DNA of 21,367 nt from Shewanella sp. (lineage in GTDB: Bacteria; Pseudomonadota; Gammaproteobacteria; Enterobacterales; Shewanellaceae): positions 1-21,367 of the forward strand of contig SDWK01001025.1 of NCBI GenBank assembly GCA_004195335.1, given 5' to 3'. Position 1 is the stretch's first letter. Each line of letters begins with the position of its first letter. The position numbers and the translations under genes are program-made. The notes below the pieces were generated by a model. That model had not been told where the DNA came from. It did no database searches and worked only from the letters and a program-made list of their open reading frames with translations. Of this stretch, positions 1 to 21,367 are shown piece by piece.

Positions 1-1010
1 TTGATCAGTTCGCGATGGCCACCGACATCCGATGCCAGAACCTGTTTCCCCTGCGCCATCGCCTCCATCGGTTTGAGCGGGGTGACCAGCTCGGTTAAAC
101 GCATCGACTTTCGCGGATAAACCAGTGCATCGACCAGACTGTAATAGTGGCTGACCTGTTTATGAGGCACGCGTCCGGTAAATATAACCTGTTCCTCAAC
201 CCCTAGTTTTTTTGCAAGCCGCTTCAATGTTGTTTCTTGCGGGCCGCCACCAACCAGCAGCAGGCGCAGCTCGGGCAGTGGCTGTCGCAGCTGTTCAAAG
301 GCTTTGATTAGAATGTCCAGACCTTCGTATTCATAGAAGGAGCCGATAAAACCGATGACGGATTTGTTGACCAGGTTATGGCGTTGCAAAAGGTCGGCGG
401 ATTTTGTGTGCAGCTGTTCGAATTGCTCCAAATCGACTGCATTGGGAATGGTGGTCGTGCGTTGCGGGTCAATGCCGCGTGCGATGATGTCGTCTTTGAG
501 ACCCTGGCAGATACAAGTGACCGCATCGGCATTCTTCAATACATAGGTTTCCATCGCCCGGGTCAGTCGGTAGCGCAGGCTACCCTCGCGACAGGTGCCC
601 AGGTTGACGGCGGCGTCTTCCCAGAAAGCTCGCACCTCATAGACCAGCGGCAATCCCGACTGTCGTGCGGCTTGGTAAGCGGCAACACCATTCAGGGCTG
701 GCGAGTGGGCATGGATAATATCCGGCTGCTCGCGCTCGATGACGTCTAGTATTCGCCGTTTAAGGACAGGAATGATCGCCAGTTGATTTAAAACCGGGAG
801 CTTGTTCCATAGATCAACAACCGCTGGGCTGCGGTAGAAGTGCAGTCCATCATGGGTTTCCTCGCAGTTGATAGATTCGCCTTGCTTGGGACCGGTGACA
901 TGGCAGGTTTCTAAGCCTTGCTGGCGTTGATTGTTGAGGATAGCCCGGGTACGGAAGGTGTAACCGCTGTGTAAAGGTATGGAGTGATCCAGAACGTGGA
1001 GTATTTTCAA
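1..1010 (-). CDS. Glycosyltransferase family 4, exosortase A-associated (Daro_2409-like), C-terminus cut by window edge
   Basis: The reading frame is open from TTG at 1010-1008 to the left edge, giving about 336 residues of a protein usually near 400. It starts MKILHVLDHSIPLHSGYTFR, the typical N-terminus of the third glycosyltransferase of XrtA loci. Further on are DIIHAHSPALNG, YEVRAFWEDAAV, IPNAVDLEQF, IGFIGSFYEYEGLD and a GT-B donor-site region with ELVTPLKPMEAMAQGK. It should transfer a sugar from a nucleotide donor to a lipid-linked glycan intermediate at the cytoplasmic face; donor and linkage cannot be read. TTG is chosen because GGAG lies 8 nt upstream and the only nearby ATG (1016-1014) is out of frame and closes after two codons (ATG CAT TGA). 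It follows the amidotransferase by 15 nt, so it belongs to the same operon. Family assignment rests on recognised motifs, not a search. Confidence 0.9.
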   Translation of the reverse strand, partial: MKILHVLDHSIPLHSGYTFRTRAILNNQRQQGLETCHVTGPKQGESINCEETHDGLHFYRSPAVVDLWNKLPVLNQLAIIPVLKRRILDVIEREQPDIIHAHSPALNGVAAYQAARQSGLPLVYEVRAFWEDAAVNLGTCREGSLRYRLTRAMETYVLKNADAVTCICQGLKDDIIARGIDPQRTTTIPNAVDLEQFEQLHTKSADLLQRHNLVNKSVIGFIGSFYEYEGLDILIKAFEQLRQPLPELRLLLVGGGPQETTLKRLAKKLGVEEQVIFTGRVPHKQVSHYYSLVDALVYPRKSMRLTELVTPLKPMEAMAQGKQVLASDVGGHRELI

Positions 1011-1025
1011 TGCATTAACTCCGGA

Positions 1026-2918
1026 TTAGGCGGCATTTTTTTGCATAAAGGCGGCAAACATCATCAGGGTCCAGAGGGCTGCGCTGTTATCGCGGCGTCC
1101 AGAAGCATGCTGGTCAATGAGTGTGGTCATGGTGTCCTGATTAAACAGTCCACACTCTACCATGATGCCGCTTAATAGTGATTCACGCAGTTTTTCGCGT
1201 AGGGGTCCACGGAACCATTGGACAAGCGGTACCGCGAATCCCATTTTTTTGCGGTACAGCACATCATGCGGTAGATGCGGCTCTAATGATTTTTTGAAGC
1301 AGTATTTGCCCTCTGATCCTTGTAGTGTGGCTTTTGAGTCGGCGTTAAAGGCCCATTCAACGAATTTATGATCCAGGAGTGGTACCCGTACTTCCAAAGA
1401 GTGCGCCATGCTGGCGCGATCGACTTTGGTCAAAATATCGCCCACCAGATAGGTCTTCATATCGATGTATTGAATTTTCTTAAGTGGGTCATCACTGGGG
1501 GCGCTCCCTTCGTGGTGACGAAAAACTTCCAGTGAACTGTAACCGTTAAGCTTTTGTTTCAGCTGATCGGAAAACAGCGCATCACGCGCGTCCTGGCGCA
1601 TGATCGACATCGTGTTGTGATACCCCTCAACGCTGTCGAAGGCCATCGATTGGAAGGTGGTTTTTGCGCGCAGAAAACGCGGTGCCCAGTCGAGTTTGGG
1701 GTAAGCTTTACCGAGAAAGCCAAACAATGGTCGACGTAGGCGATACGGTAACTTGTTACGCACGCTGTCTTCGTTCAGGTGCCAGCGATAACGCCGGTAG
1801 CCAGCGAGCAGTTCATCCCCTCCGTCACCTGACAGGGCGACAGTGACATGTTTACGGGCCAGTTCGCAGACGCGGTAGGTGGGCATGGCCGAGCTGTCTG
1901 CGTAGGGTTCATCATACAGATCGGCTAACTTGTCGATCAGATCAAAATCATCTTGGCTAACGGTGCCGCTGTGATGATTAGTCTGGTAGCGATCAGCGAC
2001 TTTCTGGGCATATTCGGTTTCGTTGAACGCTTTGACATCAAATCCTATGGAGCAGGTGTTGACGGGAGTGTCCTGTAACTCTGACATCAGCGCGACCACC
2101 GCACTGGAGTCAACCCCGCCGGAGAGAAAGGCCCCGAGTGGAACTTCGGCGACCATGCGCACCTTGACGGCTTCTTTAAGGCGATCAGCCAGCTCGCGTT
2201 GAGTATCTTCTAGTGTCAGTGATTGGCCGCTCAATGTGATATCCCAATACTGCACCGGCTTGGGAGTCAGCTTGAGTTGTTGATCCAGTAGCAGGTAGTG
2301 GCCGGGTTCCAATTTGAACACGCCCTCAAAGATCGTCTTCGGCTCGGGAATATAGCCAAAGGTGAAGTAATCTTCGACCGCGCGGTGGTCAATAGCGCGG
2401 GGCAGGTCGGGATGTTGTTTGAGTACCTTTAGTTCAGAACCAAAAATCAGCGAGCCATCTGCGAGGACGCTGTAAAAAAGCGGTTTAATGCCAAGTCGAT
2501 CGCGGGCAATAAAGAGCTGCTGATTGGGCTGATCCCAGATGGCGAAGGCAAACATGCCGCGGAAGTGCTCGACGCAGGCAGTGCCCCATTCCTCCCAGGC
2601 GTGGACGATAGTTTCGGTATCACTATGGGTCTTAAAGATATGGCCTTTGGCTACCAGCTCGTCGGCCAGCTCTTGGAAGTTGTAGATCTCGCCGTTGAAT
2701 ACTACGCAGACGTTGCCGTCCTCGTTAAACAGCGGCTGGTGGCCGCCGGACAGATCGATAATCGATAATCGTCGATGGGCCAGCCCGATGCCCGGACCGT
2801 AAAAAAAACCGTCATCGTCAGGACCACGGTGAGATTGAATCCCGTTCATGCGCGCTAACAGGCTTTTGTCTATCGGAGTTGTATTCTGCGGCTGAAGAAT
2901 ACCGGCAATTCCGCACAT
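1026..2918 (-). CDS. asnB: XrtA-system amidotransferase (class II asparagine synthase family)
   Basis: A 630-residue, full-length class II glutamine amidotransferase/asparagine synthase. The N-terminal glutaminase domain opens with MCGIAGIL, leaving Cys2 as the nucleophile after Met removal. It also has HRRLSIIDLS (48-57), FNGEIYN (74-80) and SDTETIVHAWEEWG. The synthase domain has the PP-loop SGGVDSS (266-272) and later ALSGDGGDELLAGYRRY and SLEVRVPLLDHKFVEWAF. Family members make an amide or related product from glutamine and ATP. In exosortase/exopolysaccharide loci the acceptor is thought to be a sugar carboxylate or similar group rather than free aspartate, but that is inference. It lies 22 nt after one glycosyltransferase and 15 nt before the next, inside the minus-strand EPS operon. 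All expected key motifs are present and no frame damage is seen. Confidence 0.95.
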   Translation of the reverse strand: MCGIAGILQPQNTTPIDKSLLARMNGIQSHRGPDDDGFFYGPGIGLAHRRLSIIDLSGGHQPLFNEDGNVCVVFNGEIYNFQELADELVAKGHIFKTHSDTETIVHAWEEWGTACVEHFRGMFAFAIWDQPNQQLFIARDRLGIKPLFYSVLADGSLIFGSELKVLKQHPDLPRAIDHRAVEDYFTFGYIPEPKTIFEGVFKLEPGHYLLLDQQLKLTPKPVQYWDITLSGQSLTLEDTQRELADRLKEAVKVRMVAEVPLGAFLSGGVDSSAVVALMSELQDTPVNTCSIGFDVKAFNETEYAQKVADRYQTNHHSGTVSQDDFDLIDKLADLYDEPYADSSAMPTYRVCELARKHVTVALSGDGGDELLAGYRRYRWHLNEDSVRNKLPYRLRRPLFGFLGKAYPKLDWAPRFLRAKTTFQSMAFDSVEGYHNTMSIMRQDARDALFSDQLKQKLNGYSSLEVFRHHEGSAPSDDPLKKIQYIDMKTYLVGDILTKVDRASMAHSLEVRVPLLDHKFVEWAFNADSKATLQGSEGKYCFKKSLEPHLPHDVLYRKKMGFAVPLVQWFRGPLREKLRESLLSGIMVECGLFNQDTMTTLIDQHASGRRDNSAALWTLMMFAAFMQKNAA

Positions 2919-6340: not shown

Positions 6341-7213
6341 TTACTGCGTGTTGCATGCTTTTTGTACAATATTGAGGTCGATCATTCGTCCCCAGTTGAA
6401 GTCCTGTAGCAGTCGCTTCAAGCGAGGCTCCGTCTGGTGCAGGTTGATGTAGTGGCGAAACCGTGATTTGAGCGAAGCGCCCTCGATGCGAGGCTGCTCA
6501 GGATCAAGCTCCCAGGGATGTAGATAAAAGACAGCGGGTTGATCGAGCTGTTTCGATGCGCGCTGCATAAGCCATTTAAACAGCGGGTAGGGATAGAGTC
6601 GAAAGTAGCCTCCACCGGCACAAGGGATTCGGCGACCGAGTAGCTCGCAGGTGGTCACCGGAATCTCCAGTAAGCCGTTATCCCAGTGAAAAGGTGTTCT
6701 GGGTGCGTCGCTATAGCCATAGAGGTCATGAGGCACGGGGTTGATGCTGGAGCTGTAACGGTAACCGGCTTCAAGCAGCTCGTCAAAGGTCCAGGGTGTT
6801 TGTTCAGAAAAGGAAAAGCTGGGGGCTCGATAGCCTTTGACTTCGTGTCCGGTCAGGTCTTCTAACAGCTGCTTGGCAGAGCGAATATCTTCTTGGAACT
6901 GATGTTGGGATAGCAGATTGATCCGCTGATGGTTGTAGCCATGGCTAGCAATTTCATGGCCAGCCTGCGCGATTTTATTTATCAGAGCCGGGTAGCGTTC
7001 CGCGATCCAGCCGAGGATAAAAAAAGTCGCTAGTGTGCTGTTGGCGTCAAGTGTATCGAGTAGTCTGTCAACATTGGCTTCGACCCTGCACTGAAGCGAT
7101 GGCCAGCGTTCAGGATGGCATTGGTTCTCGAAGGCAGATACCTGAAAATAGTCTTCTATATCAAGGCTAAGTGCGTTAATTGAATGGGATAGATCCGGGT
7201 TTGATTTTGACAT
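6341..7213 (-). CDS. XrtA-system polysaccharide deacetylase (NodB fold, DUF3473 type)
   Basis: 290 residues matching the exosortase-associated polysaccharide deacetylase family (TIGR03006-like). It opens with NALSLDIEDYFQVSAFE, holding the DIED metal/catalytic motif. It then has STLATFFILGWIAERYP, the HEIASHGYNHQ motif with the two metal-binding histidines, KGYRAPSFSFS, and the C-terminal YLHPWELDPEQPR, which is typical of the DUF3473 extension. It should remove N-acetyl (or O-acetyl) groups from the exopolysaccharide or its precursor. There is no clear signal peptide, as is usual in this family. It is separated from the glycosyltransferase operon by the oppositely oriented patatin gene, so it probably has its own promoter in 7214-7426. 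I see no strong RBS just upstream of ATG 7213, so the exact start is a little uncertain. Confidence 0.93.
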   Translation of the reverse strand: MSKSNPDLSHSINALSLDIEDYFQVSAFENQCHPERWPSLQCRVEANVDRLLDTLDANSTLATFFILGWIAERYPALINKIAQAGHEIASHGYNHQRINLLSQHQFQEDIRSAKQLLEDLTGHEVKGYRAPSFSFSEQTPWTFDELLEAGYRYSSSINPVPHDLYGYSDAPRTPFHWDNGLLEIPVTTCELLGRRIPCAGGGYFRLYPYPLFKWLMQRASKQLDQPAVFYLHPWELDPEQPRIEGASLKSRFRHYINLHQTEPRLKRLLQDFNWGRMIDLNIVQKACNTQ

Positions 7214-7426: not shown

Positions 7427-8275
7427 ATGTATGACTATGACAAAGCCGTCTCCAGAAATATCGGCTGGGTCACGGAGCAAGAGCAAGCGCTGCTGCGTAA
7501 TAAGCGTGTTGCGATCGCGGGTATGGGCGGGGTGGGTGGTCGCCATGCCATGACGCTGGCAAGGCTGGGGGTCGGACGGTTTTGTTTGTCGGATTTTGAT
7601 GACTTCGAAGTGCATAACTTCAACCGGCAGGACGGTGCCTATATAAGTACGGTGGGGCGCAGTAAGCTCGAGGTAATGACCGAACGGGTGCGGGATGTAA
7701 ATCCTGAGGCCGACATCAGAGAGTATCCTGAGGGCGTGAATGCCAGCAACGTAGACCAGTTTCTGGACGGAGTGGATATCTATGTTGATGGCTTGGATTT
7801 TTTTGCTATGGATGCCCGGCGACTAGTTTTTGGCAAGTGTGAAGAGAAAGGTATTCCCGTGGTAACCGCTGCGCCTTTGGGGATGGGCTGTGCGTTTCTG
7901 GCATTCTTGCCTGGAAAAATGAGTTTTGAGGACTATTTTTGTTTTGAGGGGTTATCGGAAAAGGATCAGCTCATTCGATTCTTAATTGGACTCGCACCAA
8001 CCATGTGGCAGCGTCACTACTTGGTGGATCGATCCAGTGCCGATTTTGATGCAAAAAAAGGCCCCTCTATGCCGATGGCCGTTGATCTATGTGCGGGAAT
8101 CGCGGGCATTAATGTCCTCAAAATCCTGTTGGGACGAGGTGATGTCATTTGTGCACCTAGAGGTCTACATGTTGATGGTTATCTGAATCGATATAAAATT
8201 ACCTATCGCTGGCTGGGGAATAAAAATCCACTGCAGCTAGTTTCTTTTATGATAGCTAAGAAAATTCTTGGCTAA
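7427..8275 (+). CDS. E1-like adenylyltransferase (ThiF/MoeB/HesA superfamily)
   Basis: 282 residues with the E1-like Rossmann core: RVAIAGMGGVGGRHAM, with the nucleotide loop GMGGVGG at 32-38, then SDFDDFEVHNFNRQ (55-68) with the Asp, Asn and Arg-Gln that bind ATP/Mg in MoeB and ThiF, and VDGLDF (120-125) at the place of the E1 aspartate motif. Family members adenylate a C-terminal carboxylate (ubiquitin-like protein or peptide) or similar substrate. The CxxC zinc pairs of MoeB/ThiF are absent. Cys138 and Cys155 are possible thiolating cysteines, but neither is proven. The C-terminal part (after about 165) is unlike MoeB and may bind a different partner. The gene is 57 nt ahead of a nitroreductase-family gene on the same strand, suggesting a two-step activation/redox module. 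Substrate unknown. Confidence 0.88.
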   Translation: MYDYDKAVSRNIGWVTEQEQALLRNKRVAIAGMGGVGGRHAMTLARLGVGRFCLSDFDDFEVHNFNRQDGAYISTVGRSKLEVMTERVRDVNPEADIREYPEGVNASNVDQFLDGVDIYVDGLDFFAMDARRLVFGKCEEKGIPVVTAAPLGMGCAFLAFLPGKMSFEDYFCFEGLSEKDQLIRFLIGLAPTMWQRHYLVDRSSADFDAKKGPSMPMAVDLCAGIAGINVLKILLGRGDVICAPRGLHVDGYLNRYKITYRWLGNKNPLQLVSFMIAKKILG

Positions 8276-8332
8276 GTTTATTGGCATGCATTTGTTGTAA
8301 TGTTTCTACACAATTCATATAAGGATTAATCA

Positions 8333-9409
8333 GTGAGTTCCCTAACCAAAGATATTCTCGACAATATTTTAACTGCGGCGGTATGTGCCCCCTCGGGAGA
8401 TAACGTTCAGCCAGCACGATTTGAGGTCTCTGCGGGCCTGCGGCAGATTGACCTTTTTAATATGCCAGAGCGGGATCCCTCTTATTTCAACTATTTGCAG
8501 CTAGCGTCCTATGTTGCCCATGGCGCAATCATCGAGAATTTCTTGATTGCAGCTAGGGTGTATGGGTTCGATGTGAATCTTAAGGTTTTCCCCTCTGATG
8601 ATATGACCCATACCGCCCGATTCGAGTTGATGGACGTTGAGCCTGAAGTCAGCCCTTGGTATGAGGCTATTTTTAAGCGTTGTACCAATCGGAGAATGTA
8701 CCGGCGAGGGAGTTTTGACTCAGAACAGAAACAAGCGATGTTGCGAGCCGTGGAAGGGATCAAAGGCGTTACGTTATCACTTATCGATAATCCTGAGCAG
8801 AAAAATGCGCTAGCGCGGCAGCTTGCAGTTAATGATCGGATGGTCTTCGAGCATAAAGAGATCCATAGTTTTTTGTTTAAGCAGATTCGGTGGAATAAGA
8901 AACAGATAGAGGATACCAAAGATGGCATGCCTATAGGCACACTGGGACTCAATCCTATAGAAGAGAAGGTCTTTTTTCCTCTGCTACGTTTTTGGGCCGC
9001 AGTAAAAATATTCAACCTGTTTGGGCTGTCCCGAATTATAGGCTTCAAAGGGTTTCTGGGCTGTCGTTCAGCGATGGCTGTAGGAATGATCAGCACAACT
9101 CTGCCTGGTAAAGAGGGGTTTCTGGCCAGTGGTCGGGCGTTTCAACGAGTCTGGCTGGAAGCAACAAGGCAGGGGATGGCGTTTCAGCCGGTTACGGGTA
9201 TCACCTTTCTGATGCAGCGCCTACAGGATGACGAGTTAGAGGGTTTTAATGCCAAGCAGAAGGGGGTGATTATGCGTGCTGAAGCGTCGATGCGTGATGC
9301 TTTCGATGCAGGTGACAGAGTGATGTCTGTTGGATTTAGGGTGGGTTACCAGCGCGATCAAGCCATAAAGACTGAGCGCCGATTACCAGTCATAACAGAA
9401 AAAAAGTAA
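8333..9409 (+). CDS. Nitroreductase-family flavoprotein paired with the E1-like gene
   Basis: 358 residues, starting at GTG 8333 with AAGGA about 8 nt upstream. The N-terminus has ILTAAVCAPSGDNVQPARFE, the FMN-binding APSxxNxQP signature of nitroreductases. The C-terminal half has GRAFQRVWLEATRQGMAFQP, the second conserved flavin/dimer segment. Residues about 200-250 (EKVFFPLLRFWAAVKIFNLF) are hydrophobic and could touch a membrane or a hydrophobic substrate. Family members use FMN and NAD(P)H, or oxidise heterocycles in peptide natural products. With the adjacent E1-like gene the pair resembles known ThiF-nitroreductase associations, but no precursor peptide is visible nearby, so the product remains unknown. 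The gene ends 133 nt before the convergent prsT stop. Confidence 0.87.
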   Translation: MSSLTKDILDNILTAAVCAPSGDNVQPARFEVSAGLRQIDLFNMPERDPSYFNYLQLASYVAHGAIIENFLIAARVYGFDVNLKVFPSDDMTHTARFELMDVEPEVSPWYEAIFKRCTNRRMYRRGSFDSEQKQAMLRAVEGIKGVTLSLIDNPEQKNALARQLAVNDRMVFEHKEIHSFLFKQIRWNKKQIEDTKDGMPIGTLGLNPIEEKVFFPLLRFWAAVKIFNLFGLSRIIGFKGFLGCRSAMAVGMISTTLPGKEGFLASGRAFQRVWLEATRQGMAFQPVTGITFLMQRLQDDELEGFNAKQKGVIMRAEASMRDAFDAGDRVMSVGFRVGYQRDQAIKTERRLPVITEKK

Positions 9410-9542: not shown

Positions 9543-12314
9543 TCATATTTTAGAGTTGGTTAGCCCCTTAATCATCTGGCTGATAGTGTTTTTTTCCGGA
9601 AAATCACGTCCGTTATTTTGAAGCGTTTGAAGAATGTCTCGCGCCCTGTTTTGATCTCCAGATTGAATGAGGATCAAGGCCTTGTGATATAGATAAGATG
9701 GATTGCGGGGCTGTTTTTCTACTACTTCAGTAATTAGGTTTAATGATCTAGCGGGTTGTATGTCTTTAAGTAGTAAGGCGAGTGTGTCCATGATGTCGAC
9801 GTTAGTTGGTGCTAACGAATAAGCTTTCTCTGCATGAATAAGGGCCTGGTTGAGGTCAGTGTCACGAAGCAGCCAAGCCAGGTTGTTTAAAGCAAGGAGG
9901 TTGCTGGGGTGCAATGATAATAGTTTGTTATAGGTGTCCGCCGCTTGTATATTTTGTTTGGATGTAATTAATCTTGATCCGTACTGTTGCAAGGCTAATT
10001 GGTCTTCAGGATATTCATTTAGCCATTCTTGTAGTAGCAAGAGTGATTTTTTAAAATCGCCATTGGACCAAAGTGCTTCTTCGAGCCAAAGCAGATGTAT
10101 GTTAGTTTCTTCGCCATTAAAAACATTTTTATAGGCTAGAATGGCGGTTGGATAATCACCAGACATATGTGAAATTTGCCCTTCCAGTTTATCCAAGTCT
10201 AGAGGGTTTATTTTTTTATCTTTAAGTAAGCTGAATTGTTTTTTTGCATTTTCAATATCGTGCTTGCGTAGTAGTAACTCAATGTAGTTGGCTCGAGCAG
10301 AAATATGGTTTGGGTTAAGTTTTAAGGCTTCTATGAGACGCGATTCCTGGATTTCCTGTTGCTTAAGTCCAGCGTATGCCTTTGAGGATAAAAATAGGTA
10401 GTGGCTATTGGTTGGATTATTTTTAATTAACTCCTCTGTGTACCTCAGTGCGCGGTTGAATTGTTTATCTGCGAGTAGGCTTTCCGTGAAGAGGATCAGA
10501 GCTTGAGGGTTGTTGCGGTACGGAAGGCGAGCTTTTTCTATTAATAGCGTCGCTTTTTTAGGCGCGCCCGAGTTAAGGTGAAAACGTCCAAGGGCAAGAT
10601 AGGGTTGCCACGACGGATTTTCAAGTTCAATCGCTCTTTCGAGTGTTTTTACCATATCCATTGATAGCCCTTGTAGCGATTGGACTCGGGATAAGTTAAT
10701 AAGTGTTACCAATGAACCTGGATTTCCCTTAAGAGCGTTTAAATAATGATTTTTGGCGCCTTCAAGGTCTCTCGCGCCAAGTGCTAATGCTGCTAGGCCG
10801 CTGTTAGCCGATAGGTCGTTAGGGCTGATCTTAAGAGCGCTTAAGAGGGTTGTTTTGGCCTCATCAAAGTGTCCGCCCGATAGATAGACCGATCCCAGCG
10901 TCACAAGTGCTTGGGCGCTGGTTGGGTGGGCGTCGAGATATTGCTGTGCAGTCTTCAGTGCCTCATCGTAGTTTTTGTTGGACAAATGGTAGAGTGCTAA
11001 TCGGTACGGTGTTTCTTCGAATGATGGATCGGTATTTCTTGATTTTTCAAGCATGCTTAGGCCTGAAGTGATTTTCCCATCTGCGAGCAGTTGGAGTCCT
11101 TGTTGTAAGAGTTCTGATGCAGAGAGATCGTTTGGGGTTTGTGTAAGGAATGCTTGTTGGGTATCAAAATCAGTATCGCGATCCAGCGCTTTTTCCAAAA
11201 GGAGCAATGAAAAAGTATCTTCCGGTGATCTGCTCAAAAGCCCTTGGATAATTTTCTCTGCCTTTGCAAACTCCCCATATTGCAGTTTTATTGCCGCAAG
11301 CATTTTGAGTGCGGCCATGTTTTGAGGTGCAGATGCTAAAATCTTCGAAAGTAAAGTATGAGCTTGCTCATTCTCCTTGAGGACGAAATACGATGTAGCT
11401 GCATAAAACTGGGCGGGAGCATAATTTGGATTGATGCCCAGTGCTGCTGATAGGTTGGTACGTGCGGATTCGTAGTTTTTCTGATGAAAGTCAAGTAGCC
11501 CCTGGGTGTAATTGGCAGCAAATGAGTTACTGGCTCTTTGTTTCAACTGCTTGATTCCGTTTTTTGCGCTGTCAAACTCCCCTAGAGAGATACTGGTTGT
11601 GGTGAAATTGAGCAGGTCGATGACGTTGTCGTGGTGCAGCTCTGAAGCGCGAAGGTAAGCGGTTTGAGCTGTTTTAACGTCCCCCTCCCTCTGTGCGATA
11701 TCGCCTGAAAGGCGCCAAGTAAGGTGATGGAGTGGGTTTGTTTCGAAAGAACGGGCTAGTAGCTCCTTCGCTTCTTGTAACTGTCCTTGTATTAATCGCA
11801 ATGCCCCTATTCCGGATAGGGCATCGGAGTCCTTGTCATTAAGCGCTAGGGAATCGGAGAACATCTGTTCACTGGCCTGTATTTTATCCGTGACCAGATA
11901 GGCCCAGCCTTTAGTTGCCAAAAGAGATGCTTTGGGCACGTCTGCAATTGCGATAGGAGCGGTTAGTTTTAAGACTTTTTCGGGTTGTCTATTTTCAAAG
12001 AGGGCTTTAGCTAATAAAGGTTGAACATCCGTAAGCGGGTAGCCATATTGGCCTGCCAGGGTTAGTTCTTTGGCGGCGGCGGCGCTATCTCCTGTTGCGA
12101 AATAGGCGGTCCCCATTAGCCATCTGACTTCTGGGTTCTTTGGTGTAGATAAAGCGGCGTTTTTTAAGTAAACCAGAGCTGTGGAGAAGTCCTTCTGAGC
12201 GATAGATGTCTTGGCTTGGTCAATATGCTGGGTCGGGGAAAACTGTCCGCTGCTATCGCAACCCGCTGATAGGACAAGAAGTACCGCTATACAAAGCATA
12301 TTTATTTTTCGCAT
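9543..12314 (-). CDS. prsT: PEP-CTERM/XrtA-system TPR-repeat lipoprotein PrsT
   Basis: 923 residues, the expected size for PrsT (TIGR02917-like). A lipoprotein signal MRKINMLCIAVLLVLSAGC ends in lipobox LSAGC with lipidated Cys19. The rest is nearly all tetratricopeptide repeats, recognisable by spaced A/G-x-Y motifs such as NPEVRWLMGTAYFATGDSAA, NYAPAQFYAATSYFVLKENE and HPSNLLALNNLAWLLRDTDL. TPR solenoids bind proteins, so it is likely a scaffold for EPS export or PEP-CTERM sorting. The residue after Cys19 is Asp20, which in enterobacteria keeps lipoproteins in the inner membrane. This would place PrsT on the periplasmic face of the inner membrane, if the rule holds here. AAGGA precedes the ATG. 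It lies downstream of the PEP-CTERM gene on the same strand, but a strong terminator intervenes, so it probably has its own promoter. Confidence 0.95.
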   Translation of the reverse strand: MRKINMLCIAVLLVLSAGCDSSGQFSPTQHIDQAKTSIAQKDFSTALVYLKNAALSTPKNPEVRWLMGTAYFATGDSAAAAKELTLAGQYGYPLTDVQPLLAKALFENRQPEKVLKLTAPIAIADVPKASLLATKGWAYLVTDKIQASEQMFSDSLALNDKDSDALSGIGALRLIQGQLQEAKELLARSFETNPLHHLTWRLSGDIAQREGDVKTAQTAYLRASELHHDNVIDLLNFTTTSISLGEFDSAKNGIKQLKQRASNSFAANYTQGLLDFHQKNYESARTNLSAALGINPNYAPAQFYAATSYFVLKENEQAHTLLSKILASAPQNMAALKMLAAIKLQYGEFAKAEKIIQGLLSRSPEDTFSLLLLEKALDRDTDFDTQQAFLTQTPNDLSASELLQQGLQLLADGKITSGLSMLEKSRNTDPSFEETPYRLALYHLSNKNYDEALKTAQQYLDAHPTSAQALVTLGSVYLSGGHFDEAKTTLLSALKISPNDLSANSGLAALALGARDLEGAKNHYLNALKGNPGSLVTLINLSRVQSLQGLSMDMVKTLERAIELENPSWQPYLALGRFHLNSGAPKKATLLIEKARLPYRNNPQALILFTESLLADKQFNRALRYTEELIKNNPTNSHYLFLSSKAYAGLKQQEIQESRLIEALKLNPNHISARANYIELLLRKHDIENAKKQFSLLKDKKINPLDLDKLEGQISHMSGDYPTAILAYKNVFNGEETNIHLLWLEEALWSNGDFKKSLLLLQEWLNEYPEDQLALQQYGSRLITSKQNIQAADTYNKLLSLHPSNLLALNNLAWLLRDTDLNQALIHAEKAYSLAPTNVDIMDTLALLLKDIQPARSLNLITEVVEKQPRNPSYLYHKALILIQSGDQNRARDILQTLQNNGRDFPEKNTISQMIKGLTNSKI

Positions 12315-12543: not shown

Positions 12544-13530
12544 TTAGGCTTTTTTATATTTACGCGAAGCGGCAAAGCCAAGAAGAGCGAGGCCCATTAG
12601 TGCAATAGATCCTGGCTCCGGTACTCTTCTTGCGTCAGCCTTGGTGTTGATAGAGCCTGTTAGAGTGTAGATGGTATTAGCGGTTAGGGCGTTGGTGGTT
12701 GCTGACATAAACCCGCTATCGGCGACGCCTAAGCCCGCTCCGATAAATGCTAGTTGATCAAAGGGGAGTCCTATGGCGTTTCGGCTAACTAAGTTGCTGT
12801 TGAGGTTGACGACATCGCTAATTTCGGTACCACCGGTGATATTGCCATTTGTGGTTCCATCCGGCTCCCAGTTAAAGATCGTGCTGGTGTCGGATAGGGT
12901 AAAGTTAAAGCTGTATTCGGCAGATGCAAATCCGGGAGCTTTTTCTCCAGCTTCCACAAGTACTTCCAAGTAGGATCTGACGTCAAATTCAAATGTAATA
13001 CCTTGTGACAAATCTTCACCCAGTATGAACGAGGCTGTGATCGTAAGGCCGTTATTTGACGTCGATGAAGCCTTGCTCTCTCCGGTTTTTATGGCCACAT
13101 AGGAGCCGCTTCCCACATTTGCTGCTGGAGCAAGCCCAAGTCCTGTCGCTGGAGCACCTTCTTCGTATTGATCAGCTGCTGCGTAGTTACCCGCGGCCGG
13201 TCCGCTCACAACCGGGAACGCATTGTCCACAGGAAGCGGGGTGCAGCCCGTTCCAACACAGATTGGAGCAAAATCGATACCACCGGCAGCAGCGTCACTG
13301 TTAGATATTGATGCTCCGTCGAAATCCACTTTTTGGTCTGCGGAGCTGGTAAAAGCTACGGCTCCGCCAAAGAAGTCGCCCGCATCCAATTGAACAGTGG
13401 TAGCGGTATTTATGAGTTTAAAGTTGGTCATGTCAATGAACGCGGTCGAAGAAACACCGGCATTGGCCTGCCCAGCTGCCATCGCCCCAAGCGCTGCGCT
13501 AGCTAGTGCAATTTTGATTTTGTTGTTCAT
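12544..13530 (-). CDS. PEP-CTERM sorting domain-containing secreted protein
   Basis: 328 residues with the three-part exosortase substrate tail: PEP motif VPEPGS (303-308), a short hydrophobic helix (about 309-321, IALMGLALLGFAA) and a basic end (RKYKKA). The N-terminus is a Sec signal peptide, with cleavage likely after QANA (residue 24). The mature part is acidic, rich in Ala, Gly, Ser, Thr and Asn, mostly beta-like, and has only two cysteines in PICVGTGC (91 and 96), which could form a disulfide. XrtA is expected to cleave at the PEP motif and attach or release the protein at the envelope or EPS matrix. GGAGAAGGATA gives a strong RBS. It has its own sigma-54-type promoter candidate and terminator, consistent with a regulated, highly expressed single-gene unit. 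The biochemical role of the ectodomain is not recognised. Confidence 0.94.
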   Translation of the reverse strand: MNNKIKIALASAALGAMAAGQANAGVSSTAFIDMTNFKLINTATTVQLDAGDFFGGAVAFTSSADQKVDFDGASISNSDAAAGGIDFAPICVGTGCTPLPVDNAFPVVSGPAAGNYAAADQYEEGAPATGLGLAPAANVGSGSYVAIKTGESKASSTSNNGLTITASFILGEDLSQGITFEFDVRSYLEVLVEAGEKAPGFASAEYSFNFTLSDTSTIFNWEPDGTTNGNITGGTEISDVVNLNSNLVSRNAIGLPFDQLAFIGAGLGVADSGFMSATTNALTANTIYTLTGSINTKADARRVPEPGSIALMGLALLGFAASRKYKKA

Positions 13531-13600: not shown

Positions 13601-13620
13601 TTATGCAGCCTGTGTGCCAA
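13601..13620 (-). promoter_or_regulatory. Sigma-54 (RpoN) -24/-12 promoter of the PEP-CTERM gene
   Basis: Minus-strand TTGGCACACAGGCTGCATAA matches the consensus TGGCAC-N5-TTGC with one mismatch in the -12 block (CTGC); GG and GC are spaced exactly 10 nt apart. Transcription would start near 13593, leaving a leader of about 63 nt to ATG 13530. PrsR, encoded at the right end of the window, belongs to the sigma-54 activator family that controls PEP-CTERM genes in other bacteria, so promoter type and regulator agree. The activator binding site upstream was not identified. Confidence 0.72.
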
Positions 13621-14162: not shown

Positions 14163-14878
14163 GCGCTTTCAAAGAGTTGCCGCCTTATCGCTGCCAAGCT
14201 TATCGCAATAGCTTTACGGTCTTGGCTTGTGTGCTGCCGGTTCGACTACGGAAACGCGAGCTTTGGGTGGAATGTACAGTCTCCATGCTTAGCTGCGTAG
14301 TCGCGGCGCGGTGATAGCTCCATCTACCCACCTCTTTTTCGCTGGTGTCCTCGCTTCATTCCGCTGGCGTAGTGCCTTTTAAAGTGCCTGCACTTGCTGG
14401 CTCCATAGGCGCTGATCAAGCAATGTTCCGCGAATCATTCAAAGGTCGGCACAAAATTGCTGTGCGGCCTGTTTGCACGCGTGGTAGTGATAAAAAAGGT
14501 GTCAAATGGGGGGCTGAAGGCTCGTGACGCGAGGCGTCAATCCTCTGCATGGAGAGGTTAACGGCTGCCATCAACGACTCAACGGCTGTGTCCGGTGTTT
14601 TTCGCAGTGTCGCCCTCCTTGGTATCTATCACCCTGTCTGGCTTGGCTGGTTGCGATGGTACGATCAGGATCTATCAAAAACAAACCAACAAGTTGATAT
14701 TGTGGGTGTATATAATATTTTTTATTTTTGGCAGAAAGTTTTCTCGCATTTAGTGCGAGCATGGTCGGCGGCCATCCTGGTTGTTGCTGAGCATGCCTGC
14801 TCGTGCTTGCTGTACTGTAGCGGTATTCCGCAGTTATGGTTATATTGTGGGCTGCTTTACTAAAGGATGGAGATAGAT
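14163..14878. other. Gene-poor stretch between MITE-like copy 1 and the methyltransferase
   Basis: No supported gene. It holds small perfect inverted repeats: TGACGC/GCGTCA (14525-14539), CCTCT/AGAGG (14542-14557) and CTCGCA/TGCGAG (14743-14759). The open frames here (14345-14527, 14549-14863) show no RBS or family motifs. A perfect TATAAT at 14711-14716, about 160 nt ahead of the methyltransferase, lacks a -35 box at proper spacing. Confidence 0.45.
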
Positions 14879-15754
14879 ATGCCTAGCGTTGCTGTTATGC
14901 GTACCCTTGTGAGGGAATTAATGACGAGTGAGCGTGCACCTCGTGTTACTGAGCCAGATCTTGTTATGAGCGATCCCGAGCAAGTTGAGGCTTATACACG
15001 TGCAGGTCGCGTTGATGGTGTGATGGCGCCTGTTTATCTTTTCCATGCCTATCAGATATGTGATGTTGTAAAGGCGGGTGACACGGTTGTGGACTTGGCT
15101 TGTGGGCCCGCAACCCAGCTGGCTCTTGTGGCTTCTTTGATGCCGGATGTTAATTTTATCGGTGTTGACCTTTCTCGTGAAATGCTCAAACGTGCTCACG
15201 AGTATATTGCTGAGCTTGGTTTGACAAATGTAGAGTTCCGCTACGGTAGTATTACTCAGTTGGATAGCTTTGAGGACTTGAGCATTGATGTCGTTATGTC
15301 GACGATGGCTCTCCATCATCTGCCTGACAGTTCATCTTTGTGCGAGGTTTTTTCCGAGGTGAAAAGGATTATCAAGCCAGATGCTGGATTGTACTTGGTC
15401 GATTTTGGACATTTGAAATCGATGAAATCCATTGAGTCTTTTGGTTATCAGTATGCCGATCGGCAGCCTAAATTGTTTACGGAAGATTATCTTAACTCTT
15501 TGCATGCTGCATTTTCGGTAAATGATTTTAGACAGGCGGTATCGTGTCTAGAGGGTAGGGGGGCTTTGTATACAACCTTCGTGGCCCCTTATATGATCGC
15601 ATTTAAGAGTCAGGCGCGTGGGGGTGTGGAAAACAAGGTTCAAGCCAGTCTTTCATCCTTAAAGAGTAATCTACCAAGCTATCATAAAGTTGATTTCAAA
15701 GATTTATGCACGTTTTTTTCTTTGGGTGGGCTTAAGTCAAAATATATAAAGTGA
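14879..15754 (+). CDS. Class I SAM-dependent methyltransferase
   Basis: 291 residues from ATG 14879, preferred over ATG 14867 because GGAG lies 6 nt upstream of it while the upstream ATG has no RBS. The SAM-binding fold shows motif I VVDLACGPATQLAL, motif II IGVDLSREMLKRA, and the post-motif segment VVMSTMALHHLPDS followed by VKRIIKPDAGLYLVDFGH. These are features of small-molecule methyltransferases (UbiE/methyltransferase-11/25-like). An N-terminal helical extension of about 60 residues and a C-terminal region of about 100 residues probably form the substrate lid. The substrate is unknown; methyl capping of a glycan is one possibility in this locus. It stands alone in gene-poor DNA between two MITE-like copies, and its codons look more AT-ending than those of the glycosyltransferase operon, so acquisition by transfer is possible. 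Confidence 0.87.
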   Translation: MPSVAVMRTLVRELMTSERAPRVTEPDLVMSDPEQVEAYTRAGRVDGVMAPVYLFHAYQICDVVKAGDTVVDLACGPATQLALVASLMPDVNFIGVDLSREMLKRAHEYIAELGLTNVEFRYGSITQLDSFEDLSIDVVMSTMALHHLPDSSSLCEVFSEVKRIIKPDAGLYLVDFGHLKSMKSIESFGYQYADRQPKLFTEDYLNSLHAAFSVNDFRQAVSCLEGRGALYTTFVAPYMIAFKSQARGGVENKVQASLSSLKSNLPSYHKVDFKDLCTFFSLGGLKSKYIK

Positions 15755-16632: not shown

Positions 16633-16893
16633 GGTGAGTATCGCCAAAGTAGATCAGACGTTCAAAAAGCAGGTTCAGTGTACTGGTATGTTGGATAAAT
16701 TAGCATGCTGGAGTTAAAGCAAGCATGAGCCGAGTGGTGATTGCCCCCCACGCCTTCTTTGTTCGCCTATGTTGTTAGGGGTTTTGGGCTTAATCGTAGG
16801 TTTACTAAAAATAATTGCTCCAGCTCAGTCGGTTGATTGATCGTAAAAGTCGCATGGTTTGGTGCTTTGGAGTGGGCAGTTCAGGAGCTTGTT
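16633..16893. other. Leader region of the secreted protease gene
   Basis: 261 nt without a supported gene. It probably contains the protease promoter, but no convincing -35/-10 or sigma-54 site is visible. AGGAG at 16883-16887 is the RBS that fixes the protease start. Confidence 0.45.
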
Positions 16894-17723: not shown

Positions 17724-18458
17724 ATGACCGATACCAGGTTAGTGGATTGCTTTGATCGATACTTCTACATCTGCCGAGCGGATTCTGATGTGTTATGCGC
17801 GCTTGCCTACCAAGTTCGCTACCAGGTGTATTGTAAAGAGCTTGAATTTGAAGATGAGTCAGCGTTTCCGGACAAACTGGAGTCTGATGGCTTCGATGCG
17901 TTTTCAGACCATTTTCTAATCTTTCACCGTGGTGATCCAGATGAGGTGGTGGGTACGGTACGATTGGTGCGACCTCAGCACAGAGGGCAGAAGTTGCCCG
18001 TCGTGGTGCACTGTCTTGATGCAATTGACAGTGACAAGATCGATCTGGATCATTTGTATGATGGTCGTTATGGCGAGTTGTCCCGGCTGGCTGTAAAGGG
18101 TGAGTATCGTCGACGCTTGGGTGAGAGCAAGGTGCCCTTTGTGGTCAATGGCTCGCGTGCACATCTGGGGTTTCCTGGTTTTCCCTATATCGCCGTCGGA
18201 CTCTATATGGCGGTAGCGGCCTGGTGTCATTCTCGGGGTATGCACGCCGTGATCGTGATGATGGAGCCGCGTCTGGCGCGTCACTTGGCCCGTTTAGGGA
18301 TTCTGTTTGAACCGGTCGGTAGAGAGATTGTGTACCATGGCCGTAGGGCGCCTTATACAATTAATCAGGATGTTTTTTTTCGCCACATAAAGCCCCCTCT
18401 CAGGGAGTTGTATGACTATGTTGCGGCTGAGGTCGGTGATTGTTATCAGGATCTCTAA
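17724..18458 (+). CDS. PEP-CTERM/exosortase system-associated acyltransferase (LuxI-like fold)
   Basis: 244 residues matching the exosortase-associated acyltransferase family (TIGR03694-like), related to N-acyl-homoserine-lactone synthases and GNAT folds. The N-terminal third has YQVRYQVYCKELEFE then DGFDAFSDHFLIF, and the core has EVVGTVRLVRP. The most diagnostic part is GELSRLAVKGEYRRR, with the Glu-x-Ser-Arg arrangement shared with LuxI enzymes. A hydrophobic C-terminal half (GFPYIAVGLYMAVAAWCHSRG) completes the fold. It probably transfers an acyl group, from acyl-ACP or acyl-CoA, to an unknown acceptor linked to EPS or signalling. The RBS is weak (GGGG shortly before ATG). It is 13 nt ahead of the N-terminal fragment of prsK, suggesting co-transcription with the regulator genes. 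Confidence 0.93.
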   Translation: MTDTRLVDCFDRYFYICRADSDVLCALAYQVRYQVYCKELEFEDESAFPDKLESDGFDAFSDHFLIFHRGDPDEVVGTVRLVRPQHRGQKLPVVVHCLDAIDSDKIDLDHLYDGRYGELSRLAVKGEYRRRLGESKVPFVVNGSRAHLGFPGFPYIAVGLYMAVAAWCHSRGMHAVIVMMEPRLARHLARLGILFEPVGREIVYHGRRAPYTINQDVFFRHIKPPLRELYDYVAAEVGDCYQDL

Positions 18459-18598: not shown

Positions 18599-20455
18599 TT
18601 GATTCGCAATGCGGCCTGGTTGCTGTTTGTGCTCAAGCTGTGCGATTTTGGGCGAGGGGGTAAGGATTTCTGGTCGCTGAAGGCTCCCTGGTTGGTCGTG
18701 TTTGGTACCCTGGTGTTGCTGCTGCTCAATGTCTTACAGCGGCAGAGTTTTGACTTCGTTATTGATCTTGGACTCCCCTTTGAATATTTGGGGCCGTTAT
18801 TGCTGGTTACTGCGGTGTTGGTGGTGACAGAGCAGTGGTTTCGAAATATTCCCGTTACCCAGCGCTGGCCGGTCAGGTTTTTGTTGATCAGTATCTGTCT
18901 GATTTTTGGGTACGATTTTTTACTTTATTCCGAAGCGCTGTTATTTCAAAGGATCGACGCTGATTTTTGGCAGGCCAGAGGATTTGTCTCTGCTATGGCG
19001 GCTCCCTTGATTGCGGTATCCGTATCGCGGGCGCGCGACTGGAATCGGGAACTGAGGATCTCGCGCAATGCGGTGTTCTTTTCCGCGACCCTGCTGCTCT
19101 CGGGTATCTACCTGCTGATCATGAGTCTGGTGGGGTATTACCTGAGGTGGTTTGGTGGCGGCATGGGCGGTGCTGTGCAGATCATATTTTTGGTTGCGTC
19201 CTTGACTCTGTTTGTGTTGTTGCTCAGCTCGGGACGGTTTCGATCGCTGGTGGCTGTCTGGCTGAATAAGCACTTTCTGAGTTATAAGTACGATTATCGC
19301 AATGAGTGGATGCAAGCCAATGCGCGCTTTGCTTCCCTGCCGATGGATGAGCGTTACTACCAAGAGCTGCTTCTCGGTATTACCGAGCCGGTGGATAGTA
19401 ATGGAGGGGTGCTCTGGATTCTGGAGTCCGACAGTATCGTAACGCAATATGCCAGCAGTGCGGATTTTGTAATGCCGCTGGATCTCGTCAGCGACAGGGC
19501 GCTGCTGGATTTCCTGGAAGCAACGGGTTGGGTCATGAATCTGAACGAATATCAGGATGATCCCCGGCTGTATCGGCAGGTGGTGGTTCGTCCGCAGTTG
19601 TTGATGGGCGGGTTATGGTTGCTGGTGCCTTTGTTGCACCAATCACGACTGGTGGGTGTTGCCGGATTGGCCCCTCCCAGGGCTGATCATCCGGTTAACT
19701 GGGAGGACTTTGATCTACTCAAGGCGCTGGGTGGTCAGTTGGCAGCCATGATCGTGCTTAAGCGTACCAGTGATTCGTTGTCGGAAGCACGGCAGTTCGA
19801 AGCCTTTAATCGATTATCCGCGTTTGTGGTGCATGATCTGAAAAATATCATTGCTCAGCTGTCATTGGTGGTTAAAAACGCCGAGCGGCACAAGCATAAT
19901 CCGGAATTTGTTGATGATGCGTTAGAAACGTTAGGCCACGCAGTGTCACGCATGAACCGATTGCTGAGCCAGTTGCGCAAGCAGACGCAGGTCTTGATTC
20001 CGTCAGATTTGGTTGAGCTGGATCGGCTTATCGAGACGGTTGTGCAACGTCAGTCTGGCTGTCTTCCTATTCCTGAGTCTGTTCAGGGTCAGCAAGGGAT
20101 CAGGTTAAAGATCGATAAGGAGCGCTTGACGGATGTGCTCTGTCATCTGGTGCAGAACGCCCAGGATGCCACGTCGGATTCAGGTCAGGTGCAAATAGCA
20201 CTGGTAAAACAGGATCATGAGGCTATCCTAGAAATTATGGATAACGGTTGTGGCATGGATCCTGAGTTTATCCGCGATCGTTTGTTTAAACCTTTTGATA
20301 CCACCAAAGGTAGTGCGGGAATGGGTATAGGTGCCTATGAGGCCCAGCAGTTTTTAAAGGCCAATAAAGGCGGTTTGGATGTGCAGAGCCAGCCCGGAAC
20401 GGGGACTCGATTGAGGCTCCGGTTGCCGATATTTGAGGCGTTGGATCAACAGTGA
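18599..20455 (+). CDS. prsK: PEP-CTERM system histidine kinase PrsK (main body, N-terminus displaced)
   Basis: 618 residues in this frame, from a TTG that is unlikely to be the native start (see fragment 18472-18597). Several membrane helices lie between about 5 and 210, followed by a GAF-like sensor region (about 245-390, with MGGLWLLVPLLHQSRLVGVA). The kinase core has H-box FVVHDLKN with phosphorylated His412, N-box LVQNAQDA (518-525), G1 DNGCGM (548-553) and G2 GMGIGAY (574-580). The VHDLKN form with an N following K is typical of PrsK. It should sense an envelope or EPS signal and phosphorylate PrsR. The stop precedes the prsR GTG by 7 nt. The catalytic body is intact; whether it can be made and inserted correctly without the missing N-terminal segment is doubtful. 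Confidence 0.9.
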   Translation: MIRNAAWLLFVLKLCDFGRGGKDFWSLKAPWLVVFGTLVLLLLNVLQRQSFDFVIDLGLPFEYLGPLLLVTAVLVVTEQWFRNIPVTQRWPVRFLLISICLIFGYDFLLYSEALLFQRIDADFWQARGFVSAMAAPLIAVSVSRARDWNRELRISRNAVFFSATLLLSGIYLLIMSLVGYYLRWFGGGMGGAVQIIFLVASLTLFVLLLSSGRFRSLVAVWLNKHFLSYKYDYRNEWMQANARFASLPMDERYYQELLLGITEPVDSNGGVLWILESDSIVTQYASSADFVMPLDLVSDRALLDFLEATGWVMNLNEYQDDPRLYRQVVVRPQLLMGGLWLLVPLLHQSRLVGVAGLAPPRADHPVNWEDFDLLKALGGQLAAMIVLKRTSDSLSEARQFEAFNRLSAFVVHDLKNIIAQLSLVVKNAERHKHNPEFVDDALETLGHAVSRMNRLLSQLRKQTQVLIPSDLVELDRLIETVVQRQSGCLPIPESVQGQQGIRLKIDKERLTDVLCHLVQNAQDATSDSGQVQIALVKQDHEAILEIMDNGCGMDPEFIRDRLFKPFDTTKGSAGMGIGAYEAQQFLKANKGGLDVQSQPGTGTRLRLRLPIFEALDQQ

Positions 20456-20462
20456 GAGATGC

Positions 20463-20987
20463 GTGAGTCAAAACAAGGACGCTAAGGTTCTTTTGGTTGT
20501 CGAGGACGATCTGGGGCTGCAAAAGCAATTGAAATGGTGCTTTGAGCAGTATCAGCTGGTGTTTGCCGAGGATGAAGCATCTGCAATTAAGCAGTTGCGG
20601 CGGTTCGAACCGGAAGTGGTCACTCTGGATCTTGGGCTGCCGCCCGATCCGGCCAATGCCACGGTTGGGCTGGGTGTTCTGCAGCAGATGCTTAAACTGG
20701 CCCCTTATACTAAGGTGATCGTGGTTACCGGTAATGACGATCAGTCTAATGCGGTGCGTGCAGTCGGCATGGGCGCCTACGATTTTTATCAGAAGCCGAT
20801 AGACCCGGATGTGCTGTCGCTAGTGGTCGACAGGGCGTTCAAACTGTCGCAGTTGGAGCGGGAGAACCGTCGCTTAGCCGCTGTGGTGAAGCCGTTGGAT
20901 GGTTTGATAGCGGCTTCCGATGAGATGCTGGCTATCTGCCGAATGGTCGAGAAAATTGCCCCCGCCGGGGGAGAGTGGTACCGGTAA
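20463..20987 (+). CDS. prsR: PEP-CTERM-box response regulator PrsR, N-terminal receiver part, frame-broken
   Basis: Start GTG 20463 (GAGAG upstream), 7 nt after prsK; longer frames into prsK are unlikely. The receiver domain has VLLVVEDD (acidic pair Asp15/Asp16), phospho-acceptor Asp56 in [18 protein letters not shown] and the conserved Lys in YQKPIDPD. The [11 protein letters not shown] loop is typical of PrsR. The linker [36 protein letters not shown] leads into the AAA+ domain, but then reads AGGEWYR and stops at TAA 20985-20987. The expected continuation (a beta strand ending in GESGTGKE) resumes one frame over at 20968. The lesion looks like loss of about 20 nt. As it stands only a receiver domain would be made. 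Confidence 0.88.
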
Positions 20988-21367
20988 AGAAGTGATAGCC
21001 AAGGCTGTTCATGGTTTAAGCGAGCGCAGTGGTGGGCGCTTTGTGGCGATCAACTGTGCATCTATTCCTGATAACTTGCTTGAGAGCGAGTTGTTTGGCT
21101 ACGAAAAAGGGGCGTTTACGGGTGCGGCCAAACAAACCCCCGGTAAGATCGAAACAGCTAATGGCGGAACCCTGTTTCTGGATGAGATCGGAGATATGCC
21201 ATTGCCGCTGCAAGCCAAGTTGTTGCGTTTTCTGCAGGAGAAGACGATAGAGCGGATCGGTGGGCGGCAGGAGATTGCGGTGGATGTGCGGATTATCAGT
21301 GCCACCCATCAGAATCTGGAGCAGATGATTGTTGCTGGTGGGTTTAGAGAGGATCTGTTCTATCGTC
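20968..21367 (+). pseudogene. prsR: PrsR sigma-54 activator AAA+ domain, continued in another frame, cut by window edge
   Basis: The frame starting GGG GAG AGT at 20968 encodes Walker A GESGTGKE, then [32 protein letters not shown] (the sigma-54-contacting GAFTGA loop, about 21109-21126), Walker [11 protein letters not shown], and [14 protein letters not shown] and FREDLFYR at the edge. These are the standard motifs of NtrC-family activators, and the frame stays open to the last base. It has no start codon of its own with an RBS, so it is the displaced C-terminal half of prsR. In an intact protein it would hydrolyse ATP to open sigma-54 promoters such as that of the PEP-CTERM gene at 13601-13620. 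Confidence 0.9.

What the first reader, a model, noticed from the sequence alone, without database searches (positions are those of the whole stretch)
7427..9409. E1-like adenylyltransferase plus nitroreductase module inside an exosortase/EPS locus
A ThiF/MoeB-fold protein lacking the CxxC zinc pairs is followed by a 358-residue FMN-binding nitroreductase with a hydrophobic insert. Such pairings activate a carboxylate and then do redox chemistry on it, as in peptide or amino-acid modification. No precursor peptide or ubiquitin-like partner is visible, and I do not know this pair as a standard XrtA component. It could modify a PEP-CTERM protein tail, a glycan substituent or a signal molecule (a LuxI-like acyltransferase lies 8 kb away).
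Basis: partly seen in the sequence, partly recalled or inferred. Interest (0 to 1): 0.7.

Follow-up and report, generated by a model that had tools for sequence, protein, structure and literature searches.

The report
Exosortase-locus acyl-oxazolone synthetase pair
Two adjacent genes in a bacterial exopolysaccharide and surface-protein-sorting locus encode a ThiF-type cyclase and a flavin oxidase that are predicted to turn a fatty-acyl amino acid, likely made by a nearby acyltransferase, into a ring-closed lipid (an acyl-oxazolone), which would give this sorting system a small-molecule arm that can be tested.

Summary
The pair is real, and its chemistry is a known kind. The ThiF protein (7427-8275) and the nitroreductase (8333-9409) match the two halves of one fused family, the ThiF/flavin-oxidase proteins. 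Published enzymes of this kind (OxzB, TrzS, split TyzB/TyzC) cyclise and desaturate N-acyl aromatic amino acids to oxazolones. [quoted passage not shown]

In 229 class-level genomes the ThiF family is over cut-off in 21. Of these, 19 have an exosortase (55 of 208 others) and 17 the acyltransferase (12 of 208 others), within 11 kb of ThiF in all 17. Close relatives add a methyltransferase and an EDSAP-1 PEP-CTERM protein, both in the window.

Prior print: acyl amino acid synthases linked to exosortase (2011), a stieleriacine cluster with a PEP-CTERM gene (2020).

Against: no exosortase in this assembly, to which the contig may be foreign; 6 of 21 ThiF genomes show no flavin oxidase nearby. Product, methylation and role are inferred.

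The parts
7427..8275 (+). ThiF-fold adenylating cyclase (PRK08223/NF006077 family), proposed to close N-acyl amino acids to oxazolones
   Evidence: NF006077 408 bits, cut-off 266; ThiF half of PRK14851 300 bits; no CxxC; Arg67, Lys80 and Asp124 invariant and aligned with E. coli ThiF
8333..9409 (+). Acg-type flavin-dependent oxidase (nitroreductase superfamily), proposed desaturase
17724..18458 (+). [quoted passage not shown]
   Evidence: TIGR03694 211.5 bits, cut-off 112; Pfam FeeM 29 bits, cut-off 27; within 11 kb of ThiF in 17 of 17 surveyed genomes with both
14867..15754 (+). class I methyltransferase, proposed tailoring enzyme (family start likely at 14879)
12544..13530 (-). EDSAP-1 family PEP-CTERM surface protein, neighbour of the methyltransferase in relatives
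   Evidence: NF041538 193.8 bits, cut-off 100
9543..12314 (-). PrsT TPR lipoprotein of XrtA systems
   Evidence: TIGR02917 565 bits, cut-off 312
18599..20455 (+). PrsK histidine kinase, 140 bp after the acyltransferase; N-terminal part of the family model not in this ORF
   Evidence: TIGR02916 635 bits, profile 64-679
20433..20987 (+). PrsR response regulator, first part; the frame breaks near 20985 and the contig ends at 21367
   Evidence: TIGR02915 233 bits (cut-off 503), profile 1-161 of 445; frames read
6341..7213 (-). XrtA-system polysaccharide deacetylase
   Evidence: TIGR03006 414 bits, cut-off 276
1026..2918 (-). XrtA-system amidotransferase
   Evidence: TIGR03108 1054 bits, cut-off 817
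3..1025 (-). XrtA-system glycosyltransferase, cut by the contig end
   Evidence: TIGR04063 531 bits, cut-off 442

Best explanation
The ThiF protein and the nitroreductase encoded side by side here likely form a split acyl-oxazolone synthetase that would close and desaturate an N-acyl aromatic amino acid, predicted to be made by the exosortase-family acyltransferase encoded 9 kb away. Proposed steps, all inferred for this organism: (1) TIGR03694 acyltransferase: acyl donor plus L-Tyr, Phe or Trp gives N-acyl amino acid. (2) ThiF: ATP adenylates its carboxylate, the amide oxygen attacks and a 5(4H)-oxazolone forms. (3) Flavin oxidase: O2-dependent 2,3-desaturation to the azlactone, before or after step 2. 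(4) In this subtype a methyltransferase decorates the product, most likely on the tyrosine ring. Hydrolysis would give an N-acyl dehydrotyrosine. Shown here: the homologies, the model fold, the gene linkage and the genome-level link to exosortases. Its role, most likely a lipid signal or biofilm effector expressed with the PrsK/PrsR, exopolysaccharide and PEP-CTERM programme, is inference.
Against: In this window the acyltransferase is 9.4 kb from ThiF, not adjacent. No exosortase was found in the own assembly. Of the 21 ThiF-positive survey genomes, 7 have ThiF and oxidase in one frame, 8 (with the window's) in separate nearby frames, and 6 show no oxidase in the 20 kb fetched (G010, G055, G066, G107, G124, and G223, whose ThiF frame is 686 aa long); neither did three further same-order genomes (G333, G338, G344). 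So desaturation is not universal. Only 13 of 43 loci with this ThiF type showed an acyltransferase in the stretch held, some of it cut short by contig ends. The 36 genomes whose oxidase locus lacks this ThiF type have an exosortase in 3, but 31 of the 36 are 1.4 Mb or smaller and the 3 lie among the 5 larger ones, so that contrast carries little weight. No substrate or product was observed. The residues tested in TrzS could not be placed exactly, because no TrzS sequence was fetched.
Confidence: 0.85

Rival explanations
1. The final product is the ring-open N-acyl 2,3-dehydrotyrosine (thalassotalic, kyonggic or stieleriacine type); the oxazolone is only an activated intermediate or is never released. 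(This shares the enzymes of the best explanation and differs in the end product.)
For: PMC12479983 (passages): NAS + ThiF + nitroreductase clusters in producers of N-acyl dehydrotyrosines, where no acyl-oxazolone was observed. Named Thalassotalea ThiF proteins are 63-67% identical to the window's.
Against: Oxazolones hydrolyse in acid and react with methanol during extraction (PMC12856293), so absence in extracts is weak. OxzB, TyzB/TyzC and TrzS give the ring.
Confidence: 0.4
2. The ThiF/oxidase pair modifies the PEP-CTERM protein itself (for example its C-terminus or a lysine), the EDSAP-1 protein being the target.
For: EDSAP-1-like genes sit beside the methyltransferase in 5 of the 7 close loci with it, and 2.3 kb away in a sixth; the five adjacent ones pass the EDSAP-1 cut-off, the sixth was not tested. 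Azlactones are electrophiles that react with amines (general chemistry, recalled).
Against: EDSAP-1 is over cut-off in 8 of 229 genomes and ThiF in 21, with 5 in common. The constant partner is the acyltransferase (17 of 21).
Confidence: 0.06
3. The pair decorates the exopolysaccharide (an acyl or amino-acid substituent on the glycan).
For: The locus holds XrtA-system glycosyltransferase, amidotransferase and deacetylase genes. In Methylomonas LW13 disruption of an exosortase-system N-acyl amino acid synthase prevents the normal polysaccharide band, restored by complementation (PMC11072679).
Against: The related enzymes in print act on free N-acyl amino acids; no glycan-directed domain was found in either protein.
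Confidence: 0.05
4. The ThiF is a housekeeping TcdA- or MoeB-like enzyme and the nitroreductase a chance neighbour.
For: TcdA structures are the best PDB matches by sequence.
Against: The own assembly has a separate MoeB (428 bits) and TcdA (414 bits) over their cut-offs; the window ThiF scores 74.5 for TcdA; ThiF-oxidase proximity recurs in 40 of 43 loci.
Confidence: 0.01

Closest known systems
OxzAB of Pseudoalteromonas rubra (oxazolone synthetase; known here through PMC10404671 and PMC12856293, the original paper not held)
   Same: Acyltransferase + ThiF + flavin oxidase; the fused OxzB corresponds in layout to the two genes here.
   Different: Here ThiF and oxidase are separate genes, the acyltransferase is 9 kb off, and a methyltransferase and XrtA genes lie between. 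OxzAB sequences were not compared.
TyzABC and TrzAS (tyrazolones, tryptazolones; PMC10404671, PMC12856293)
   Same: Split (Tyz) or fused (Trz) ThiF/flavin oxidase; oxidase matches the Rv1355c (TrzS) family at 166 bits; Acg-type fold.
   Different: Exosortase, PEP-CTERM and methyltransferase are not mentioned in either main text; the window ThiF is nearer PRK14851 (300 bits) than Rv1355c (68 bits).
[quoted passage not shown] passages read)
   Same: NAS + ThiF + nitroreductase; the Stieleria clusters also hold methyltransferases, and that of S. maiorica a PEP-CTERM gene with EPS genes upstream: the closest whole-locus match.
   Different: Planctomycete, several NAS copies; the S. maiorica methyltransferase clusters with SfmM2, that in the S. 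neptunia cluster with UbiE; EDSAP-1 or Prs genes were not named in the passages read. Sequences were not compared.
Exosortase-linked N-acyl amino acid synthases (Craig 2011, seen only as a citation)
   Same: The acyltransferase and its link to PEP-CTERM/exosortase loci.
   Different: Full text not held, so whether it mentions the ThiF or oxidase is unknown to me.
CouO/NovO aromatic C-methyltransferases (5m58, 5mgz)
   Different: CouO Arg121, whose exchange gave almost complete loss of activity (PMC5289526), is His151 in the 18 sequences aligned.

Membership tests
Acyl-oxazolone / N-acyl dehydro-amino-acid pathway | ThiF-fold cyclase of the oxazolone type | tested here: met
   ThiF half of PRK14851 300 bits; NF006077 408 bits. 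Homology only; activity not tested.
Acyl-oxazolone / N-acyl dehydro-amino-acid pathway | Acg-type flavin-dependent oxidase adjacent or fused to the ThiF | tested here: met
Acyl-oxazolone / N-acyl dehydro-amino-acid pathway | N-acyl amino acid synthase gene in the cluster | tested here: met
   TIGR03694 211.5 bits at 17724-18458; 9.4 kb away, not adjacent here
Acyl-oxazolone / N-acyl dehydro-amino-acid pathway | Residues shown to matter in TrzS (Asp217, Arg540, Gln651) | tested here: inconclusive
   No TrzS sequence fetched. ThiF Asp124, Arg67 and Lys80 are invariant and align with E. coli ThiF; oxidase Gln285 is invariant, near the profile place expected for Gln651; Arg540 could be Arg169 or Arg186.
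Acyl-oxazolone / N-acyl dehydro-amino-acid pathway | Oxazolone product | not testable with these tools
   needs expression and mass spectrometry
XrtA/PEP-CTERM system component | Exosortase in the same genome | tested here: not met
   None in the own draft assembly, which may be composite; 19 of 21 ThiF-positive genomes in the class survey have one
XrtA/PEP-CTERM system component | Non-random association with exosortase genomes | tested here: met
   19 of 21 against 55 of 208, p 1e-8
Sulfur-carrier or ubiquitin-like E1 (MoeB/ThiF) | CxxC zinc pairs | tested here: not met
   no CxxC
TcdA | Score over the family cut-off | tested here: not met
   74.5 bits, cut-off 304; a separate TcdA exists in the assembly
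CouO/NovO-type aromatic C-methyltransferase | His120 equivalent | tested here: met
   His150, invariant in 18; RebM (3bus), an O-methyltransferase by recall, aligns a His-His there too, so not discriminating
CouO/NovO-type aromatic C-methyltransferase | Arg121 equivalent | tested here: not met
   His151 in the 18 sequences aligned

The most novel reading that the evidence does not exclude
XrtA/PEP-CTERM systems own a private lipid signal: a ring-methylated acyl-oxazolone made by the acyltransferase-ThiF-oxidase-methyltransferase set and sensed by the membrane kinase PrsK, which switches exopolysaccharide and surface-protein (EDSAP-1) expression on at density.
Probability: 0.17. Interest if true: 0.85.

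Novelty: new variant of a known kind. Interest (0 to 1): 0.5.

Why it matters
The exosortase-associated acyltransferase family TIGR03694 has a name but, as far as I know, no settled product within the sorting system. If this reading holds, its product is fed into ThiF/oxidase chemistry. Among acyltransferase-positive survey genomes, those with the ThiF have an exosortase in 15 of 17 and those without in 4 of 12 (p 0.0036), so the link to exosortases seems to run largely through this pathway. That turns a vague "LuxI-like gene near XrtA" into a testable route with a mass-detectable product, in bacteria with published genetics (Methylomonas LW13, where disruption of such an acyltransferase prevents a normal polysaccharide band; PMC11072679. 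Whether LW13 itself carries the ThiF and oxidase was not checked).

Tried and rejected

Of these 80 loci, exosortase was asked for 27 (26 with unfused ThiF, plus L034 without one) and 36 (no such ThiF in the stretch). The 17 others (16 fused, and L101, overlooked) were not asked. Fisher tests treat genomes as independent; the survey was drawn evenly over the class and its 21 ThiF positives fall in 19 families, but no tree-based test was made. For genomes with several acyltransferases the nearest copy on the ThiF contig was used. In one search, 4 of 20 sampled own-genome contigs read only N.

Literature limits: de Rond 2021 and Craig 2011 are not held. Statements on what is in print rest on searches. 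Read as outline and named sections or parts: PMC10404671 and PMC12856293 (not whole). Read as outline and passages: PMC12479983. One section and passages: PMC11072679. Passages only: PMC7293339, PMC5289526, PMC3684757, PMC3226654, PMC8776678.

Changed on re-checking: L030 is titled Acidobacteriota, so the ten closest loci are nine by title of Gammaproteobacteria, plus L030; G147 was moved from fused to separate frames; the 36-genome contrast was downgraded.

Full report
OBSERVATION. Two ORFs on the + strand, 7427-8275 (282 aa) and 8333-9409 (358 aa, GTG), are 57 bp apart. The first is a PF00899 protein without CxxC. The second matches PF00881 only in part (29.6 bits) but matches the flavin-oxidase half of fusion families over residues 3-350. 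The locus is an XrtA/PEP-CTERM exopolysaccharide locus by family models: TIGR04063 glycosyltransferase (cut by the contig end), TIGR03108 amidotransferase, TIGR03006 deacetylase, PrsT, an EDSAP-1 PEP-CTERM protein, the TIGR03694 acyltransferase, PrsK and part of PrsR.

THE FIRST ENZYME. The LuxI-like gene at 17724-18458 is TIGR03694 (211.5 bits), the exosortase-associated acyltransferase family. A link between N-acyl amino acid synthases and exosortase loci is credited to Craig 2011, which I saw only cited; that TIGR03694 proteins are such synthases is recalled from that work and fits the FeeM match.

GENOME SURVEY. The same 229 class-level genomes were searched for each part. ThiF (NF006077 over cut-off): 21. 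Exosortase (PF09721 over cut-off): 74. TIGR03694 over cut-off: 29. ThiF with exosortase: 19 of 21 against 55 of 208 (p 1e-8; without the own genome 19 of 20, p 1e-9). ThiF with acyltransferase: 17 of 21 against 12 of 208 (p 1e-14). In all 17 genomes with both, an acyltransferase lies on the ThiF contig, 36 bp to 10.8 kb away, in 10 of 17 under 1 kb. A relatives search found ThiF in 5 of 60 genomes (own, G139 and three more), and in those three an acyltransferase found with my own profile lies within 1.3 kb of ThiF. In 8 of the 19 genomes with ThiF and exosortase the two share a contig, 12-45 kb apart. The acyltransferase alone is a weaker predictor of an exosortase (19 of 29): with ThiF 15 of 17, without 4 of 12 (p 0.0036).

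LOCI. A scan of genome contigs with the oxidase alignment kept the best 80 of 493 relatives. Of these 80, 43 hold this ThiF type, 16 of them fused, and in 40 of 43 ThiF and oxidase are within 2 kb; 13 of 43 show an acyltransferase and 11 of 43 a Prs gene in the stretch held, against 1 and 1 of the 37 others. In the ten closest loci (L029-L038; nine titled Gammaproteobacteria or lineages of it, L030 titled Acidobacteriota) ThiF is beside the oxidase in 8 (2.5 kb away in L038, not seen in L034). The methyltransferase is present in 7 of 10, and an EDSAP-1-like protein is its neighbour in 5 of those 7 and 2.3 kb off in a sixth; the five neighbours pass the EDSAP-1 cut-off. L034 reads PrsK-PrsR-acyltransferase-oxidase-methyltransferase on one strand. 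Each of these ten genomes has an exosortase; of the 27 genomes asked, 22 have. Of 36 genomes whose oxidase locus lacks this ThiF type, 3 have, but 31 of the 36 are 1.4 Mb or smaller and the 3 are among the 5 larger ones, so size and kinship confound that contrast.

AGAINST. No exosortase is in the own assembly. The contig may not belong to it: 0 of 35 same-genus genomes have this ThiF at E up to 1e-60; the window has 49.4% GC, while 14 of 16 readable sampled contigs have 43-47% and two have 49-50%; its tetranucleotide similarity is 0.73 against 0.58-0.84 for ten other contigs, so inside the range; reported contamination is 4.91%. The closest named ThiF proteins are from Motiliproteus. The pair's own genes are unaffected, but the host is uncertain. 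Among the 21 ThiF-positive survey genomes, 7 have the oxidase in the same frame, 8 in a nearby frame, and 6 show none in the stretch held; three more in the order show none. No chemistry has been done.

KNOWN OR NEW. The enzyme pair is known chemistry. N-acyl dehydrotyrosine clusters with NAS, ThiF and nitroreductase are in print (PMC12479983, whose main text does not mention exosortase or PEP-CTERM), and one such cluster with a PEP-CTERM gene and EPS genes was remarked on in 2020 (PMC7293339). A paper of 2013 lists two UBA/THIF genes in a PEP-CTERM-associated exopolysaccharide locus (PMC3684757). Searches for exosortase+ThiF+nitroreductase (none) and oxazolone+exosortase (one unrelated paper) found no statement of the general link in the library held. 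What is added here is the count-based link of the pathway to exosortase genomes, the split pair in an XrtA locus, and the methyltransferase/EDSAP-1 subtype.

Noticed in passing
L046, L048, L055, L056, L058-L063, L065, L067-L070, L072 and similar loci: Many genomes of about 0.4-1.4 Mb, several titled Patescibacteria lineages, carry an oxidase about 29-35% identical to the window's, often beside a distant ThiF; the one tested (L046) is of the Rv1355c/TrzS type (294 bits to NF005901). No acyltransferase in the stretch held and no exosortase in the genome: a possible split tryptazolone-type synthetase in tiny genomes.
   Followed up: partly
window 1-21367 (whole contig C1011 of G000): The contig may be foreign to its assembly: no exosortase elsewhere in it, 0 of 35 congeners with the ThiF, somewhat higher GC, 4.91% contamination.
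   Followed up: partly
5452-6336 and 16837-17655: A patatin-like hydrolase and a trypsin-like protease also sit next to acyltransferase-ThiF-oxidase in same-order genome G139 (L154); a trypsin-like gene lies beside ThiF in G333 (L180).
   Followed up: no
20433-21367: PrsR is broken: the frame ends at 20987 and regulator-like sequence goes on in another frame to the contig end; a sequencing error or a real break.
   Followed up: no
13604-13619, - strand: A sigma-54-like site with one mismatch about 74 nt upstream of the EDSAP-1 PEP-CTERM gene; such sites are not above chance in the window as a whole.
   Followed up: partly
L147, L150, L151, L179-L181 (G055, G010, G124, G338, G333, G344): ThiF with an acyltransferase close by or within about 7 kb but no detectable flavin oxidase in the stretch: a possible saturated-oxazolone variant of the pathway.
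   Followed up: no
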